Origin: Desulfurispora thermophila DSM 16022
GTDB lineage: Bacteria > Bacillota > Desulfotomaculia > Desulfotomaculales > Desulfurisporaceae
Length of the DNA stretch: 41,470 nt
Direction of reading: 5' to 3'
Assembly: GCF_000376385.1 (NCBI RefSeq)
Contig: NZ_AQWN01000013.1
Span: 1-41,470 of the forward strand
How positions within the stretch are numbered: position 1 is the first letter of the stretch; each line of letters opens with the position of its first letter. The notes beneath the pieces are model-generated. The model saw nothing but the letters and a program-made list of their open reading frames with translations. It was not told the origin of the DNA and ran no database searches. A program made the position numbers and the translations under genes. Below are positions 1,878 through 34,357 of the stretch, piece after piece.

Positions 1878-1911
1878 GAAAGCCGCTCGGTAGTCCGCCG
1901 GGCGGCTTTTG
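1878..1911 (+). terminator. Rho-independent terminator, copy 1 of a duplicated pair
   Basis: An AAGCCGC/GCGGCTT stem with an inner CGG-TAGT-CCG hairpin is followed by TTTT. It is repeated almost exactly at 3034-3075, on the other side of the Abi gene. Confidence 0.8.
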
Positions 1912-2051: not shown

Positions 2052-2057
2052 TATAAT
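2052..2057 (+). promoter_or_regulatory. -10 box of the AbiF RNA/gene
   Basis: A perfect TATAAT lies in a very AT-rich stretch, with no strong -35. Transcription would begin near 2063-2065, just before the structured RNA. Confidence 0.5.
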
Positions 2058-2062
2058 CTAAG

Positions 2063-2130
2063 TAACAGAGCCTACCGCGCCTCTGGGTACATGCGTGTAT
2101 TCATGCGGACCAGGGTAGGCCGGTTTTATT
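2063..2130 (+). ncRNA. Structured RNA in front of the AbiF-type gene, candidate antitoxin RNA
   Basis: A long nested hairpin begins with GCCTACC (2070-2076) paired to GGTAGGC (2114-2120). Inside it, CTGGGT pairs with ACCAG around a top stem GCGTG-TATT-CATGC. The hairpin is followed by CGGTTTTATTTAT. It lies between the TATAAT box and the ribosome site of the HEPN gene. Abi_2/AbiF genes are reported to carry a conserved small RNA directly upstream that acts as an antitoxin. Position and structure here fit that pattern. The U-rich tail also allows it to be a terminator that attenuates the gene. Confidence 0.6.
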
Positions 2131-2145
2131 TATGAGGGAATGGCC

Positions 2146-3033
2146 ATGGCTTGTTCCGAACATTCTCTAGATGAATTTCCAAAACCACCCTTAAGTATTG
2201 AGGAACAGATCAAGTTATTAGTTAGTCGGGGATTGGTTGTGGAAGACGAAACATTCGCAACAGATGTTTTAAATCATGTAGGGTATTATAGATTAAGTGG
2301 CTATACTTTAAGTCTTAAAACAGGTGACCTATTTCATGAGGGCGTAACATTTCAGAAAGTTTATAATATATATGAATTTGACCAGAAATTACGATACTTA
2401 TTGCTCGGGATTATCGAGATAGTTGAAATAGCTTTCAGAGCGCAAATAGCCAATTATATGGCGCTAAAATATGGTGCTTTAGGCTATTTAAACAGGGTTT
2501 ATTTTTCAAATGGTGACTATCATAAAAAATTTCTTGATGAGTTAAATGATCAAATAACAAAAAACCAGGAAAAAGAATTGTTTGTAAAGCATCACATTGA
2601 GAAGTATGAAGGTAAGTTTCCTATATGGGTAGCGGTAGAGGTTTTTTCGTTGGGCATGTTATCTAAATTTTTTAAAAATATGAAGACTAAAGATCAGAAG
2701 GCAATATCTCGCAAATTTTATGCATTTTCTCATGAATATATTTCTAGTTGGCTACACTCTTTGGTTAATCTAAGAAATATATGTGCTCATTATGGGAGGC
2801 TCTATAATAGAAGATTTACAATAATGCCGAAATTTAGCAAGGATGCTAAAATAAAGGGTATTCAGGGTAATAGCTTATTTGCCTGTATATTTTTATTGAA
2901 GTACCTTGTTAATAATAAGAAGAAGTGGAATAATTTCCTTATAAACCTTCAAGCAATTGTCGATGAATATAAGGATGACATAGACATTTCATTAATGGGT
3001 TTTCCTGATAATTGGTATGAAGTACTAAGTTAA
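2146..3033 (+). CDS. AbiF/AbiD-type (Abi_2) HEPN abortive-infection protein
   Basis: This is a probable RNase of a phage-defence or toxin-antitoxin system. The 295-residue protein matches the Abi_2 family along its length. It has an N-terminal helical part with L-x-x-x-G-L-x-V and the typical V-G-Y-Y-R-L-S-G-Y motif near residues 45-55. The HEPN active-site motif R-x4-H lies in LRNICAHYGRLYNRRF (R210, H215 from the 2146 start). ATG 2146 is preferred over ATG 2140 because GAGGG (2134-2138) is seven bases from 2146 but touches 2140. The gene is far richer in AT than its neighbours, so it is recent cargo. It is bracketed by two copies of the same terminator and preceded by a structured RNA. Related HEPN proteins are neutralised by such an RNA. 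Confidence 0.88.
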   Translation: MACSEHSLDEFPKPPLSIEEQIKLLVSRGLVVEDETFATDVLNHVGYYRLSGYTLSLKTGDLFHEGVTFQKVYNIYEFDQKLRYLLLGIIEIVEIAFRAQIANYMALKYGALGYLNRVYFSNGDYHKKFLDELNDQITKNQEKELFVKHHIEKYEGKFPIWVAVEVFSLGMLSKFFKNMKTKDQKAISRKFYAFSHEYISSWLHSLVNLRNICAHYGRLYNRRFTIMPKFSKDAKIKGIQGNSLFACIFLLKYLVNNKKKWNNFLINLQAIVDEYKDDIDISLMGFPDNWYEVLS

Positions 3034-3075
3034 AAAAAGCCGCTCGGTAGTTCGCCGGGCGGCTTTTCGTTTTTT
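3034..3075 (+). terminator. Rho-independent terminator, copy 2 of a duplicated pair
   Basis: The same AAAGCCGC…GCGGCTTTT hairpin as at 1878 starts directly after the Abi stop codon. It is followed by GTTTTTTGG and the ribosome site of the next gene. Confidence 0.85.
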
Positions 3076-9359: not shown

Positions 9360-12300
9360 TTGATCATTAAACGAATATTTACCACATTAATAGTATTATC
9401 AATTCTGGTGGTGATAGCTCAGCCGATTCCAGCAGATGCTGCAGGTATAATCAAAGTGGCAGTGTCAGCTTATGGCGGTCACGAGTTAGCCTTAAAAAAT
9501 GACGGCACAGTATGGGCTTGGGGGGATAACAACCTTGGTCAGCTGGGTGATGGTACCACTACCAACAGATACACCCCGGTGCAGGTACTGGGTCTTAGTG
9601 GAGTGACCGCCATTGCAGCAGGGTATGGTCACTCACTGGCCCTGAAAAATGACGGCACGGTATGGGCTTGGGGGTATAACAGCAATGGTCAGCTGGGTGA
9701 TGGTACCACTACCAACAGATACACCCCGGTGCAGGTGACAGGTTTAAGTGGCGTGACTGCTATTGCAGTTGGGCGTTCTCACTCACTGGCCCTGAAAAAT
9801 GACGGCACGGTATGGGCTTGGGGGTATAACTACCGTGGTCAGCTGGGTGATGGTACCACTACCAACAGATACACTCCGGTGCAGGTACTGGGTCTAAGTG
9901 GAGTGACCGCTATTGCAGCTGGGGAAATGCACTCACTAGCCCTGAAAAATGACGGTACAGTATGGGCTTGGGGATATAACGGTTTTAATCAGCTGGGTGA
10001 TAACTCTTATACCGACAGTACCACCCCGGTGCAGGTGACAGTGTCATCTACAACAAAGTTGAGCGGAGTAATCGCTATTTCAGCTGGGCGTAATTTTTCA
10101 CTTGCCCTTAAAAATGACGGAAAAGTGTGGGGTTGGGGAGATAAAAGCTATAATCAGTTGGGGAATGTTGCTTACGGCAATAGGGCAGAATTTACAGGTA
10201 TAACTGACATGACTGCTATTGCAAGTGGGTACTCCGACTCACTGGCCCTTAAAAATGACGGTACATTATGGACATGGGGTGGTGGTAATACACTTACGCA
10301 GGTGTCATATATAAATGGAGTGACTGCCTTTGCTGTAGGGAGTGGCCTCAAACTAGCTGTTAAAAATGACGGTACAGTATGGTCTTGGTACGCGACTAAT
10401 GGGTATGACGCTGTACAGATCAACTTTCTAAATCCACCGGCAGCCCCTTCTAGTTTAACTTCAGGAGTATTCGGTAAACAGGTCACAATATCATTTGCCG
10501 CATCCAACGGTGCAACAAGTTATGACCTGCAGCGTAGCACCGACCAGGTAAACTGGGTAGATGACCAGATAAATATTGCTGCCGGGACGGTTACCCAGGG
10601 AGGTACCGTAACCATCACCACAACCGCGCCGGAATGGGACAGAAAGTTTTACTATCGTGTCAGGGCCAGCGCTTCCGGGGTTCAGTCCGACTGGTCAGCT
10701 GCTGTATGTGCCACAATTCCGCCCGCAGCTCCTACTGGTATGACGGCAACAGTATCCGGCAAGCAGGTCACGCTGACGTTTCCGGCAATTAGTGGTGCAG
10801 TATCGTATGATATACAGCGCAGTAACGACCAGACGAACTGGGCAAACGACCAGACGGGCATTGCGGCTGGTACAGTTACCCAGGGCGGTACTGTGACGAT
10901 TAACACGACAGCACCTAACTGGGATAGAACTTTTTATTACCGCGTCAGCGTGGTCACATCAAATGGTCAGTCTGACTGGTCGGCTGCAGTAACAACAAAA
11001 ATCCCACCAGCCGCTCCCACCGGCCTGATAGTATCAGCAAACTATAAGCAGGTTACGTTAACATTCCCGGCAGTTGATGGAGCAACAAGCTATGATCTGC
11101 AGCGCAGCACCGACCAGACTAACTGGGCAAGTGACCTCTCAGGCATAGCAGCCGGTGCTGTTACTCAGGGTGGGATAGTAACAATTACCACAGCAGCACC
11201 TGAATGGGACAGGACGTTTTACTATCGAGTCAGGGTTACCACTTCCGGCGGCCAATCCGACTGGTCAGTTGCAGCGTCCGTAGCGATTGTACCCAAGCCT
11301 GTACCGGAGCTTGTATCACTGAACGAAACTGGTAACTCCATACAAGTTAAAGCAAAAGCCTGCAGCATAGCAACAACATATATCTTAAAGCGCAGTGAGG
11401 ATGGTCAGAATTACGTCATTGTGAAAACCATCCCGGCTGCAAGCCTGCAGGTAGAAAATGGTCAGGTAACGATAACTGATGACAGTATCACCTATGGCAA
11501 GCACTATTATTACAAGCTCGGGCTGGTATTGACAGGCGGAGAAGAAACCGGCGATTCCAGCCCGCTTGACATCGTGCCCATCCCGCCAACACCACCGGCC
11601 CCGCAGGTTGTAAGCATAGACGGTAGCCCGGGCACAAGTGTTAAAATCACTGTCAAAAGAGCGGATAATGCTACCAGCTATATAATTGAGCGGAGCCAGA
11701 ACAACGGGGGAAGCTGGACGGAATTTGAACAGGTTAAAACAATTCCCCAGATGGATGCCGACCCGTATGGCAACATCTGCCTTGTTGACGACAATGGCGT
11801 CCAGCGGTTGACCACCTATAAATACCGTGTCAGGGTACAGGTTAATGGAATCACCGGCGACCCGTCCCTGGAAAAGACGGTCACAACTGAATACGGTCAG
11901 ATTAATCCGCCGACCAATGTCCAGGCTGTCTGGGTGGATAACGGCATTAAAGTAACGTGGGAAGATGACAGCAACGTTGCCGGGTACCAAATCTTTCGCC
12001 GGACTCCGAGTGATAGCAAATTTAGCTCGCTGCCCATTGCTACCATTCAGCCTGGCGTACGGGAGTACATTGATACCAAAGTTACTATAGCTACTTACAT
12101 TTACATGATCAAGGCTTTCTACTACAACCTGAAATCTGACCCATCAAGTGAGGTAACAGTTACCGGTACCGGGCCTCTCCCGGCTCCATTGGGCCTCACA
12201 GCTTCCCCCGGTTCTACCAGGGTGGAGCTTTCCTGGAAGCCGGTTAACGGTGCTCCCGGTTATGTGGTTGAAATGTCGCTGGCTTCCACTACGGCTTCCA

Positions 12301-13517
12301 CTACCAACTGGCAGCAGGTTACCATGGAATTGAACAACGTTGCAGATAAAGTGACCACCGCCGTAACCGGACTTACACCGGGGACGGGCTACCAGTTCCG
12401 GGTTAAATGTGCCGGTCACCCAATGAGCAAATATACCCTGCCGGTTAAAGCTACTACGTTCCCGCCGGCACCGGAAGCTGTAAGCAACCTGGTGGCCAGT
12501 GTTGAAGGGAACACGACAACCCTGACATGGGACGGTGTGGCCGGTGCAAGCAGGTACAAGGTTGAGCGTTACATTGGCCAGACGCTATCAAGAGTTACAT
12601 TTTGCACCAGTCCTCCTTTTGTTGATACCGGGCTCAAGTGGGATACCACTTACACCTACAAAGTATTCAGTATGACGAACATCCTGTCCGAACAGGCGGC
12701 TGAAGTGGAAATAACAACATCTCCACCGCTTAGCCCTGGCCCCATAGTAAATGTGGCGGATGTTAAGCATGACAGCGTAACCCTGACGTGGTACGAAGTG
12801 GAAGGCGCGGCCGAGTATATTATCAGCCGCTCAGTTGATGGCAAGGTATTTGAGCAGGTTGGCACAACGGCAGAAACCAGGTATACTGACGACGGGCTGG
12901 CACCTTTTACGACCTATACCTATAAAGTAAGGGCCAACAACAGCGTGGCCACAATAAAAAAGGTGACCACACTGCTTGCCCCGCCTGCATCGCTGGGCGA
13001 AGTAAGGGCTGAAGTAACGGCGACCGCTATTACGCTGACCTGGGACAATGTAGAGGGCGCTACCAGCTATTATGCCGAAAGGTACTTGCAGAGCGCTCCG
13101 GAAACGGTGGAAAGAAGGCTGTACGTCCGGCTGGGCGAAACAAAGCTGGTGGACACATCATTTAAGACCGGGACTGGCTATATTTACAAGGTTTACCCGT
13201 ACAATGGCCAGAACGCAGGTGAACCGGGAGATGTGGAAGTAATGTCACCGCCGGCCAAGCCTGTAGTGAGGTATACAATACTGACAGCCAGCAAAAGCGT
13301 TAAATTGACGATGACCTGCCCCACCCCTGATGTGACATATACCATCGAGCGGAGCACCACATCATACAATGAAGGCTTTACAGAAGTGCAGGCAGGCAAC
13401 AATGGCGATTTTACCGACACCGAGCTGGCCCCAGGGACGTACTACTACAGAGTTACGGCTGTCAATGCGGACGGAGTCAAATCTTTACCGGCCTTGTTGA
13501 TAGTCCGCATAAGGTAA
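9360..13517 (+). CDS. Giant secreted RCC1-propeller / fibronectin type III protein
   Basis: This is a probable surface adhesin or pilus-associated protein. From TTG 9360 it has 1385 residues. A signal peptide covers 1 to about 27 (hydrophobic LIVLSILVVIAQP, then ADAAG). About seven RCC1-type blades of 50 residues follow (about 35-355), each with ALKNDGTVWAWG-x-N and QLGDG; together they can close a seven-bladed propeller. About ten FnIII-like domains fill the rest, each ending in a YYRV or YKV strand. The first three FnIII units (about 360-640) are near copies of each other. There is no sortase motif or C-terminal anchor. The TTG is chosen because the signal peptide starts there and the upstream leader folds onto it. 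Terminators before and after give it its own unit. Ligand unknown. Confidence 0.85.
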   Translation: MIIKRIFTTLIVLSILVVIAQPIPADAAGIIKVAVSAYGGHELALKNDGTVWAWGDNNLGQLGDGTTTNRYTPVQVLGLSGVTAIAAGYGHSLALKNDGTVWAWGYNSNGQLGDGTTTNRYTPVQVTGLSGVTAIAVGRSHSLALKNDGTVWAWGYNYRGQLGDGTTTNRYTPVQVLGLSGVTAIAAGEMHSLALKNDGTVWAWGYNGFNQLGDNSYTDSTTPVQVTVSSTTKLSGVIAISAGRNFSLALKNDGKVWGWGDKSYNQLGNVAYGNRAEFTGITDMTAIASGYSDSLALKNDGTLWTWGGGNTLTQVSYINGVTAFAVGSGLKLAVKNDGTVWSWYATNGYDAVQINFLNPPAAPSSLTSGVFGKQVTISFAASNGATSYDLQRSTDQVNWVDDQINIAAGTVTQGGTVTITTTAPEWDRKFYYRVRASASGVQSDWSAAVCATIPPAAPTGMTATVSGKQVTLTFPAISGAVSYDIQRSNDQTNWANDQTGIAAGTVTQGGTVTINTTAPNWDRTFYYRVSVVTSNGQSDWSAAVTTKIPPAAPTGLIVSANYKQVTLTFPAVDGATSYDLQRSTDQTNWASDLSGIAAGAVTQGGIVTITTAAPEWDRTFYYRVRVTTSGGQSDWSVAASVAIVPKPVPELVSLNETGNSIQVKAKACSIATTYILKRSEDGQNYVIVKTIPAASLQVENGQVTITDDSITYGKHYYYKLGLVLTGGEETGDSSPLDIVPIPPTPPAPQVVSIDGSPGTSVKITVKRADNATSYIIERSQNNGGSWTEFEQVKTIPQMDADPYGNICLVDDNGVQRLTTYKYRVRVQVNGITGDPSLEKTVTTEYGQINPPTNVQAVWVDNGIKVTWEDDSNVAGYQIFRRTPSDSKFSSLPIATIQPGVREYIDTKVTIATYIYMIKAFYYNLKSDPSSEVTVTGTGPLPAPLGLTASPGSTRVELSWKPVNGAPGYVVEMSLASTTASTTNWQQVTMELNNVADKVTTAVTGLTPGTGYQFRVKCAGHPMSKYTLPVKATTFPPAPEAVSNLVASVEGNTTTLTWDGVAGASRYKVERYIGQTLSRVTFCTSPPFVDTGLKWDTTYTYKVFSMTNILSEQAAEVEITTSPPLSPGPIVNVADVKHDSVTLTWYEVEGAAEYIISRSVDGKVFEQVGTTAETRYTDDGLAPFTTYTYKVRANNSVATIKKVTTLLAPPASLGEVRAEVTATAITLTWDNVEGATSYYAERYLQSAPETVERRLYVRLGETKLVDTSFKTGTGYIYKVYPYNGQNAGEPGDVEVMSPPAKPVVRYTILTASKSVKLTMTCPTPDVTYTIERSTTSYNEGFTEVQAGNNGDFTDTELAPGTYYYRVTAVNADGVKSLPALLIVRIR
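9480..9990 (+). repeat. Near-identical tandem RCC1 units (about 156 bp)
   Basis: At least three successive blades are nearly identical in DNA (for example GGTGATGGTACCACTACC recurs at about 9545, 9701 and 9848). Such units can gain or lose copies by recombination. Confidence 0.85.
10440..11290 (+). repeat. Three near-identical FnIII units (about 285 bp)
   Basis: Three consecutive domains share blocks such as IAAGTVTQGG-TVTI and FYYRV at the same spacing. This indicates recent tandem duplication within the gene. Confidence 0.8.
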
Positions 13518-33549: not shown

Positions 33550-33831
33550 GTGAGTAAGTTGGAAAAAAGGCTTTTGCGTTTTCTAAATAATCCCAATGAT
33601 GCAAAATGGGATCACGTGGTTATACTGTTGCGTATTATTGGTTTTACTGTCAAGGAACCTAACAGTGGTAGCCATTGGATAGTGGAATATCCTGGTAAAG
33701 GATGGCATGAAAGTATACCAGTACATAGTAACAGAACAAAGCCTGTATATTACAAGAAGCTAAGAAGGCGTATAGAAGAATGTTTGCAGAGTTACAAAGA
33801 GACGGAGGATGAAAACGATGAAGACGAATAA
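33550..33831 (+). CDS. hicA: HicA mRNA interferase toxin
   Basis: The 93-residue protein has the HicA dsRBD-like fold. It carries WDHVVILLRIIGFTVKEPNSGSHWIVEYPG, with the catalytic His in G-S-H, then a SIPVHSNRTKPVYYKKLRRRIEE segment. An acidic tail (KETEDENDEDE) is added at the C-terminus. HicA cleaves mRNA and is blocked by HicB. The GTG start at 33550 is used, because the nearby ATGs are in other frames. hicB begins inside its last codons, so the two are coupled. The gene is AT-rich relative to the surrounding DNA block. Confidence 0.88.
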   Translation: MSKLEKRLLRFLNNPNDAKWDHVVILLRIIGFTVKEPNSGSHWIVEYPGKGWHESIPVHSNRTKPVYYKKLRRRIEECLQSYKETEDENDEDE

Positions 33832-34357
33832 TAGGGACTTAGAATTCTACATGAACCTTAACTACAAGATTATATTGTCTCCTCTGTCCGATGTAGATGG
33901 TGGTGGATGGTTTGCCGAACATCCCGAACTTCCCGGTTGCCAATCAGATGGAGAGACTCCTGAAGAGGCTATTGCCAATTTAATGGAGGCGCGTAGCGCT
34001 TGGCTGAGCTTTGCTATTGAGAGAGGAAAAGAAATTCCATTGCCCAAGGAGTATCAGGTTGAGGAATACAGTGGTAAGTTTACTTTAAGATTACCAAAAT
34101 CATTACACCGCAAATTATCTGAAGTGGCAAAAAAAGAAGAAGTTAGCCTGAATCAACTGGTACTTTCATTAATATCTTATGCCCTTGGGTGCAGAACAAG
34201 AATTGAGCATATGGAGCATCATATTGGAATTATTGCAATTCATGCACAAGAACAGGAGAGCGAGGGAATTTCAGAAGAGGTATTGCAAGGGCTTATAAGC
34301 AGTATTGATGAACAATGGTCTCGTGCTAACAAATCCAGCAACTCGTTTACTCGTTAA
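33818..34357 (+). CDS. hicB: HicB antitoxin with RHH domain and C-terminal extension
   Basis: This is an antitoxin and probable autorepressor. ATG 33818 is chosen, with GGAGG ten bases before it; ATG 33809 is too close. The 179-residue protein has a HicB partial RNase-H-like domain (about 15-70, GGGWFAEHPELPGCQSDGETPEEAIANL). A ribbon-helix-helix part follows (about 88-125, FTLRLPKSLHRKLSEVAKKEEVSLNQLVLSLI). The last 45 or so residues (…EHHIGIIAIHAQEQ…DEQWSRANKSS) exceed ordinary RHH-type HicB proteins. In toxin-antitoxin-chaperone systems such a tail makes the antitoxin depend on a SecB-like chaperone. A SecB-like gene follows 47 bases later. Confidence 0.9.
   Translation: MKTNNRDLEFYMNLNYKIILSPLSDVDGGGWFAEHPELPGCQSDGETPEEAIANLMEARSAWLSFAIERGKEIPLPKEYQVEEYSGKFTLRLPKSLHRKLSEVAKKEEVSLNQLVLSLISYALGCRTRIEHMEHHIGIIAIHAQEQESEGISEEVLQGLISSIDEQWSRANKSSNSFTR

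What the first reader, a model, noticed from the sequence alone, without database searches (positions are those of the whole stretch)
2052..3033. AbiF-type HEPN gene with a structured RNA directly upstream
Seen: TATAAT box, then a 50-base nested hairpin with a four-base loop and U-rich tail, then an Abi_2 gene with R-x4-H. Known: AbiF-like HEPN RNases are reported with an upstream RNA antitoxin and are related to the origin of Cas13. The RNA here could be the antitoxin of a self-contained system.
Basis: partly seen in the sequence, partly recalled or inferred. Interest (0 to 1): 0.7.

Follow-up and report, generated by a model that had tools for sequence, protein, structure and literature searches.

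The report
AbiF toxin gene with RNA antitoxin
A mobile conjugative element in a Bacillota genome carries a small defence module, a predicted RNA-cutting toxin of the AbiF family preceded by a conserved structured RNA of about 67 bases that most likely holds it in check; the module is of a known kind, but closely related copies of the RNA turn up alone, without any toxin, in many phages and bacteria.

Summary
Window 2140-3033 (likely start 2146) encodes an Abi_2/AbiD-F HEPN protein: Pfam E 5e-54, PADLOC AbiD 2e-106, Rx4H intact, predicted fold matching only the PbAbiF-ncRNA structure 8VZ6 (TM 0.85). It is 42% identical to C. difficile AbiF, whose RNA antitoxin is experimentally proven.

The upstream RNA (about 2064-2131) is real. 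A covariance model built without the window and its nearest relatives finds it at E=1.3e-13. Across 58 homologues the outer stem, P2 and the base of P3 covary. The long P3 probably explains why Rfam abiF (RF03085) misses this copy while matching its relatives. A -10 box and a U-tract are conserved, so the RNA is its own transcript and probably an attenuator.

Verdict: a new member of the known AbiF-abiF RNA toxin-antitoxin kind, inserted between two conjugation genes.

Unexpected: the same RNA is often an orphan. 61 of 68 evaluable viral contigs, and 23 of 39 hits in Bacillota genomes, have no Abi_2 gene downstream; lytic Bacillus and Enterococcus phages carry it. A phage RNA decoy against AbiF is a testable reading.

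The parts
2052..2057 (+). -10 box (TATAAT) of the RNA's own promoter
   Evidence: sequence; at least 5/6 TATAAT at this place in 72 of 79 homologues against 15 of 79 in a control 60 nt further upstream. No clear -35 in the window.
2064..2131 (+). abiF-type RNA (predicted about 67 nt), putative RNA antitoxin
   Evidence: leave-out covariance model R2 E=1.3e-13; R1 62 bits, the only copy in the genome; covariation. 5' and 3' ends are inferred from the -10 box and the U-tract.
2070..2076 (+). P1 5' arm GCCTACC
   Evidence: pairs with 2114-2120; all 7 pairs show two-sided changes among homologues
2078..2080 (+). P2 5' arm CGC
   Evidence: pairs with 2105-2107; 100% paired, middle pair G-C to A-U in 15 of 58
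2084..2103 (+). P3 apical helix UGGGUACA[UGCG]UGUAUUCA, 8 bp, extended compared with the usual 2 bp form
   Evidence: 19 long-P3 RNAs (window included) fold better than shuffles, Fisher p 4e-16
2105..2107 (+). P2 3' arm GCG
2108..2113 (+). conserved single-stranded internal loop GACCAG
   Evidence: conserved ACC/ACCA across homologues; matches the position of the 6-nt internal loop of RF03085
2114..2120 (+). P1 3' arm GGTAGGC
2124..2131 (+). U-tract after P1; with P1 a likely intrinsic terminator or attenuator between RNA and toxin
   Evidence: sequence; at least 7 T in 13 nt after P1 in 75 of 79 homologues
2134..2138 (+). ribosome binding site GAGGG
   Evidence: sequence
2140..3033 (+). abiF/abiD gene (Abi_2, HEPN RNase toxin); likely start 2146
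   Evidence: Pfam PF07751 4.7e-54; PADLOC AbiD 1.7e-106; AF2 pLDDT 94, Foldseek 8vz6 E 3.4e-15, TM 0.85
2773..2790 (+). HEPN catalytic motif RNICAH (R212, N213, H217)
   Evidence: R212, N213 and H217 invariant in alignments of 24 and 23 sequences; aligned with RNSCCH of PbAbiF
1879..1910 (+). upstream copy of a 32-nt terminator direct repeat; ends the preceding T4SS gene
   Evidence: 97% identical to 3036-3067; these two are the only copies in the genome
3035..3067 (+). terminator of the toxin gene, second copy of the repeat

Best explanation
It is an AbiF-abiF RNA toxin-antitoxin (abortive-infection) module of type III logic, carried as cargo of a conjugative element. A promoter at 2052 makes a short structured RNA (about 67 nt). 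Most transcripts stop at the U-tract after P1, giving excess free RNA; occasional read-through makes the AbiF mRNA. AbiF folds as a HEPN RNase and dimerises; the RNA binds each subunit and blocks the RNase site formed by R212/H217. When RNA supply fails (phage shut-off of transcription, or loss of the element) the free toxin cleaves RNA and arrests growth, which protects the population and stabilises the element. Shown here: gene family, fold, catalytic residues, homologous conserved RNA, covarying structure, conserved promoter and U-tract. Inferred from relatives: toxicity, dimerisation, RNA-protein binding, attenuation. Inferred from the family and from TA systems in general: the trigger, phage defence, stabilisation of the element.
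For: Pfam/PADLOC/PDB matches; predicted structure matches only PbAbiF bound to ncRNA, 8VZ6, TM 0.85; RNA upstream of 79 of 116 homologues; covariation and leave-out model; Rfam RF03085 matches the same RNA in L005, L013, L017, L043 and in C. difficile phage phiC2; promoter and U-tract conserved. 42% identical to AbiF of C. difficile phages, where toxicity, neutralisation by the RNA in cis and trans, direct RNA-protein interaction, and a mostly short transcript with read-through were shown (PMC12373285).
Against: No expression or activity data for this copy. RF03085 does not reach even E=10 in the window, although the divergence lies mainly in the long P3. Thermodynamics of the single sequence prefers another fold (-24.7 or -22.8 against -19.9 kcal/mol). 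No clear -35 box in the window.
Confidence: 0.88

Rival explanations
1. The RNA is only a cis-acting leader (attenuator or translational regulator, as proposed for the 5'UTR of lactococcal abiD1) and does not act as a trans antitoxin.
For: U-tract directly after P1 and close spacing to the ribosome site fit attenuation; the abiD1 leader is a translational control region (cited in PMC12373285).
Against: Conserved loop nucleotides and a covarying internal structure are not needed for a terminator; the homologous RNA acts in trans on the 42%-identical AbiF (PMC12373285); orphan copies with no gene downstream keep the structure.
Confidence: 0.07
2. The hairpin is only the terminator of the preceding transcript, and its similarity to abiF RNA is chance.
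For: GC-rich hairpin with U-tract; z-score against shuffles weak.
Against: The preceding gene has its own terminator at 1879-1910; independent model E=1.3e-13; conserved -10 box directly upstream in homologues.
Confidence: 0.01
3. The module is decaying: either the toxin or the RNA no longer works and it is retained as passenger DNA.
For: The RNA is a divergent copy; several relatives have truncated toxins (L126, L161, L164, L172).
Against: Open reading frame intact, catalytic residues intact, model confidence 94, P1 to P3 all paired.
Confidence: 0.04

Closest known systems
AbiF-RCd22 of Clostridioides difficile phages phi027/phiC2 (PMC12373285)
   Same: Abi_2 HEPN protein 42% identical; promoter, RNA, U-tract terminator, toxin gene in the same order; RNA of the abiF family
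   Different: RCd22 has two abiF motifs and a separate terminator hairpin; here there is one motif with an extended P3, and P1 itself carries the U-tract
Rfam RF03085 (abiF RNA)
   Same: same P1, P2 and internal-loop architecture; relatives of the window RNA exceed the gathering score
   Different: window copy not detected even at E=10; 8-bp apical helix instead of a short loop
PbAbiF-AbiFr complex, PDB 8VZ6 (Zilberzwige-Tal et al. 2025, known here through PMC12737573 and PMC12373285)
   Same: 28% identical in the structural alignment, TM 0.85 over nearly the whole length, same catalytic RN-x3-H
   Different: homologue from a Prevotellaceae bacterium; its RNA sequence could not be compared with the tools
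Lactococcal AbiD/AbiD1/AbiF abortive infection
   Same: same protein family (PADLOC AbiD)
   Different: plasmid systems of lactococci; no trans RNA antitoxin described there in the papers read
Pseudo-ToxI of phage PhiTE (PMC3475682), for the orphan RNAs only
   Same: phage-borne stand-alone mimic of a type III antitoxin RNA
   Different: ToxI family, repeats, function shown; the abiF orphans are a different RNA family and untested

Membership tests
[quoted passage not shown]
   PF07751 183.9 bits, cut-off 25.6, profile 2-184 of 184
[quoted passage not shown]
   RNICAH; R212, N213, H217 invariant
[quoted passage not shown]
   Foldseek 8vz6 E 3.4e-15, TM 0.85, no other significant hit
abiF RNA (RF03085) | Score at or above the Rfam gathering threshold | tested here: not met
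   no match at E up to 10; relatives of the same RNA do pass. So it is not an RF03085 hit; it is filed as a homologue of that RNA on the strength of the covariance model
abiF RNA (RF03085) | P1, 1-nt spacer, P2 of 3 bp, loop, 6-nt internal loop, P1' | tested here: met
   identical layout; leave-out covariance model E=1.3e-13
Type III-like AbiF toxin-antitoxin system | RNA encoded directly upstream of the toxin with its own promoter and a terminator between | tested here: met
   -10 box, RNA, U-tract, gene; conserved in homologues
Type III-like AbiF toxin-antitoxin system | Toxicity of the protein | not testable with these tools
   inferred from AbiFCd (PMC12373285)
Type III-like AbiF toxin-antitoxin system | RNA binds and neutralises the protein in trans | not testable with these tools
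   inferred from RCd22 and PbAbiFr
Classical type III TA (ToxIN) | Tandem-repeat RNA antitoxin processed by the toxin | tested here: not met
   single RNA motif, no tandem repeat in the upstream region; processing not testable

The most novel reading that the evidence does not exclude
Stand-alone copies of the abiF antitoxin RNA, common in phages (61 of 68 evaluable viral contigs; about 40 Bacillus and Enterococcus phage records) and in toxin-free bacterial genomes, are functional RNA decoys: phages use them to disarm AbiF, and bacteria keep them as protection against AbiF-bearing mobile elements such as the one in this window. That would make abiF RNA mimicry a widespread natural RNA-based counter-defence.
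Probability: 0.5. Interest if true: 0.78.

Novelty: new member of a known kind. Interest (0 to 1): 0.48.

Why it matters
The module itself adds a well-supported member to the family from which Cas13 is thought to have arisen, and the structural alignment (58 sequences, variable P3 helix, U-tract fused to P1) gives a broader model of the RNA than the 37-position Rfam family, which misses forms like this one. The orphan RNAs matter more: if phages carry AbiF antitoxin mimics as widely as the counts suggest, RNA mimicry of an antitoxin is not limited to the one phage in which it was shown (pseudo-ToxI) but is a common phage strategy, and well-studied lytic Bacillus phages offer ready material to test it.

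Tried and rejected
Single-protein scans of genome contigs and viral contigs found nothing; replaced by the genome search and an alignment query. RF03085 search of the window and its genome was negative, which first suggested a different RNA; rejected when the same RNA in relatives matched RF03085. A recurring new gene downstream of viral orphan RNAs was looked for: the largest cluster is 7 contigs with the same-length ORF at the same distance, apparently related phages, and no family is shared broadly, so no alternative toxin is indicated. The Cell 2025 (AbiF to Cas13) paper and the paper with DOI 10.1093/nar/gkx699 are not held, so whether they mention orphan RNAs is unknown; searches of the held library found no such proposal.

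Full report
What is there. The window is one whole contig (41,470 bases) of a Bacillota genome and reads as a conjugative element: a T4SS-pilin-like protein, an SLT/M23 peptidoglycan hydrolase, a T2SSE-type ATPase, a T2SSF-like protein, a topoisomerase and a TraG-type coupling protein.

Protein. The 297-residue ORF 2140-3033 matches Pfam Abi_2 over its full length (4.7e-54), PADLOC AbiD (1.7e-106), and by sequence the PbAbiF chain 8VZ6 (1.7e-34). An AlphaFold2 model from a 23-sequence alignment (pLDDT 94) matches 8VZ6 with TM 0.85 and nothing else significantly. R212, N213 and H217 of the Rx4H motif are invariant in the alignments. AbiF of C. difficile phage phiC2 is 42% identical. The better start is ATG 2146, 7 nt behind GAGGG; the nearest homologue (L003) has an ATG at the corresponding place.

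RNA. Homologues from whole genomes, plasmids and named genome contigs show the same upstream arrangement: TATAAT, about 6 nt, (U)AACAG, P1, CGC-CUCU, variable loop, AUGCG, (G/U)ACCA, P1', U-tract, ribosome site, gene. Choosing loci by the central motif only, 79 of 116 have it; in 28 distinct P1 stems 95% of positions pair, against 76% (sd 2%) with 3' arms re-dealt. On a MAFFT alignment of 58 sequences the P1/P2/P3-base structure has 92% standard pairs against 80% in shuffles, 9 of 12 pairs with two-sided changes, and slid controls fall to 32-46%. The apical P3 varies in length; in 19 long forms it folds far better than shuffles (Fisher p 4e-16). In the window P3 is UGGGUACA[UGCG]UGUAUUCA. A model built without the window and its three closest relatives finds the window RNA at 59 bits, E=1.3e-13.

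Relation to Rfam. RF03085 (abiF) does not match the window even at E=10 but matches the same RNA upstream of the genes in L005, L013, L017, L043 and in phiC2 above its gathering score, with the same structure. The window copy is therefore best read as an abiF-family RNA with an extended apical helix, not a new RNA class.

Mechanism. Conserved -10 boxes (72 of 79 against 15 of 79 in a control) and U-tracts (75 of 79) suggest that the RNA is an independent transcript that ends just before the gene, with read-through making the toxin mRNA. In C. difficile this was measured, and the RNA neutralised the toxin in cis and in trans by direct interaction, with stem integrity required (PMC12373285). The review PMC12737573 summarises the PbAbiF work: each subunit of the dimer binds one RNA, and bulge nucleotides block the RNase. 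Applied here, the RNA is an antitoxin and P1 plus U-tract an attenuator. Toxicity, binding and phage defence of this copy are inferred.

Arrival in the element. The cassette is flanked by two 32-nt terminator copies, 97% identical, which are the only two in the genome. Related elements in the same order have one terminator and no AbiF at this junction (for example L260, L262, L268). Insertion at a terminator with duplication of it is the simplest account; the mechanism is not known.

Orphan RNAs. Searching 113 and 398 genomes with the 58-sequence model gave hits in genomes without the protein. Intersecting with a Pfam Abi_2 search of the same 398 genomes: 16 of 39 RNA hits are followed by Abi_2 within 600 nt, 23 are not, and 14 of those genomes have no Abi_2 match at all; seven further genomes of the order also have RNA hits (two of them weak, E about 0.007) but no Abi_2. 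A few orphans sit beside toxin remnants (L161, L164, L172, L126). Two species of one genus keep an orphan at the same locus with P1, P2 and the internal loop unchanged and differences in P3 (L173, L174). In IMG/VR, 73 contigs hold an exact core; 7 have Abi_2 downstream, 61 do not, 5 lie near a contig end. P1 of the viral orphans is 91% paired against 63% re-dealt (sd 3%), so the stem is maintained. Published phages carry it: 31 Bacillus and 9 Enterococcus phage records (the latter by a shorter match), nearly all with no annotated gene under the match, no Bacillus phage among tblastn hits of the toxin, and no Abi_2 within 2 kb in the four read. In phiNIT1 and phage P59 it lies among tRNA genes. 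An abiF RNA in cyanophage S-CREM1 was reported as probably functional during infection, with no role proposed in the passages read (PMC9964418). The pseudo-ToxI of phage PhiTE (PMC3475682) is the precedent for the decoy reading. Limits: the viral scan needs an exact short-P3 core, contigs overlap in origin (26 distinct P1 stems), covariance-model hits are selected for intact structure, and no activity is shown.

Verdict. The finding is real and correctly interpreted in substance; it is a new member of a known kind. The orphan RNAs found on the way are the part that deserves follow-up.

Noticed in passing
L177-L249 (61 viral contigs); phages phiNIT1 L254:1999-2054, SBSphiJ4 L255:1999-2054, phiSHEF4 L256:1988-2045, P59 L257:2000-2056: abiF-type RNAs without any Abi_2 gene downstream in many phages, with a covarying P1 stem; some lie inside tRNA arrays. 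Candidate RNA decoys against AbiF.
   Followed up: partly
L128, L129, L135-L137, L141-L145, L153, L155, L157, L160, L165, L167, L169-L171, L173-L176: Orphan abiF-type RNAs in bacterial genomes, several with no Abi_2 gene anywhere; genome G034 has five copies.
   Followed up: partly
L142, L144, L145 (match start 1501): Orphan RNAs directly after a repeated tRNA-3'-end-like sequence (GGTTCAACTCCCGCCGCCAGTACCAG) in one genome; may be a dispersed repeat or tRNA-linked unit.
   Followed up: no
window 1879-1910 and 3036-3067: Near-identical 32-nt terminators flank the AbiF cassette; related elements have a single terminator and no cassette at this junction.
   Followed up: yes
window 33809-34357: HicB-type antitoxin-like protein on the same element, a possible second toxin-antitoxin module.
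   Followed up: no
window 9360-13517: 1385-residue ORF with RCC1-like repeats and fibronectin type III domains inside a conjugative element, probably a surface protein.
   Followed up: no
L244:4736-4833 and L189:6240-6306 with 10849-10905: Viral contigs with two abiF-type RNAs, in L244 in tandem.
   Followed up: no
L168 (G167:C1): abiF-type RNA lying downstream rather than upstream of a divergent Abi_2 gene.
   Followed up: no
upstream of L034, L035, L037, L033, L029: More distant Abi_2 genes (24-31% identical) have other hairpins upstream (for example ATGCTCCTTNCGAGGACTGGGC in L034 and L035), perhaps different RNA types.
   Followed up: no
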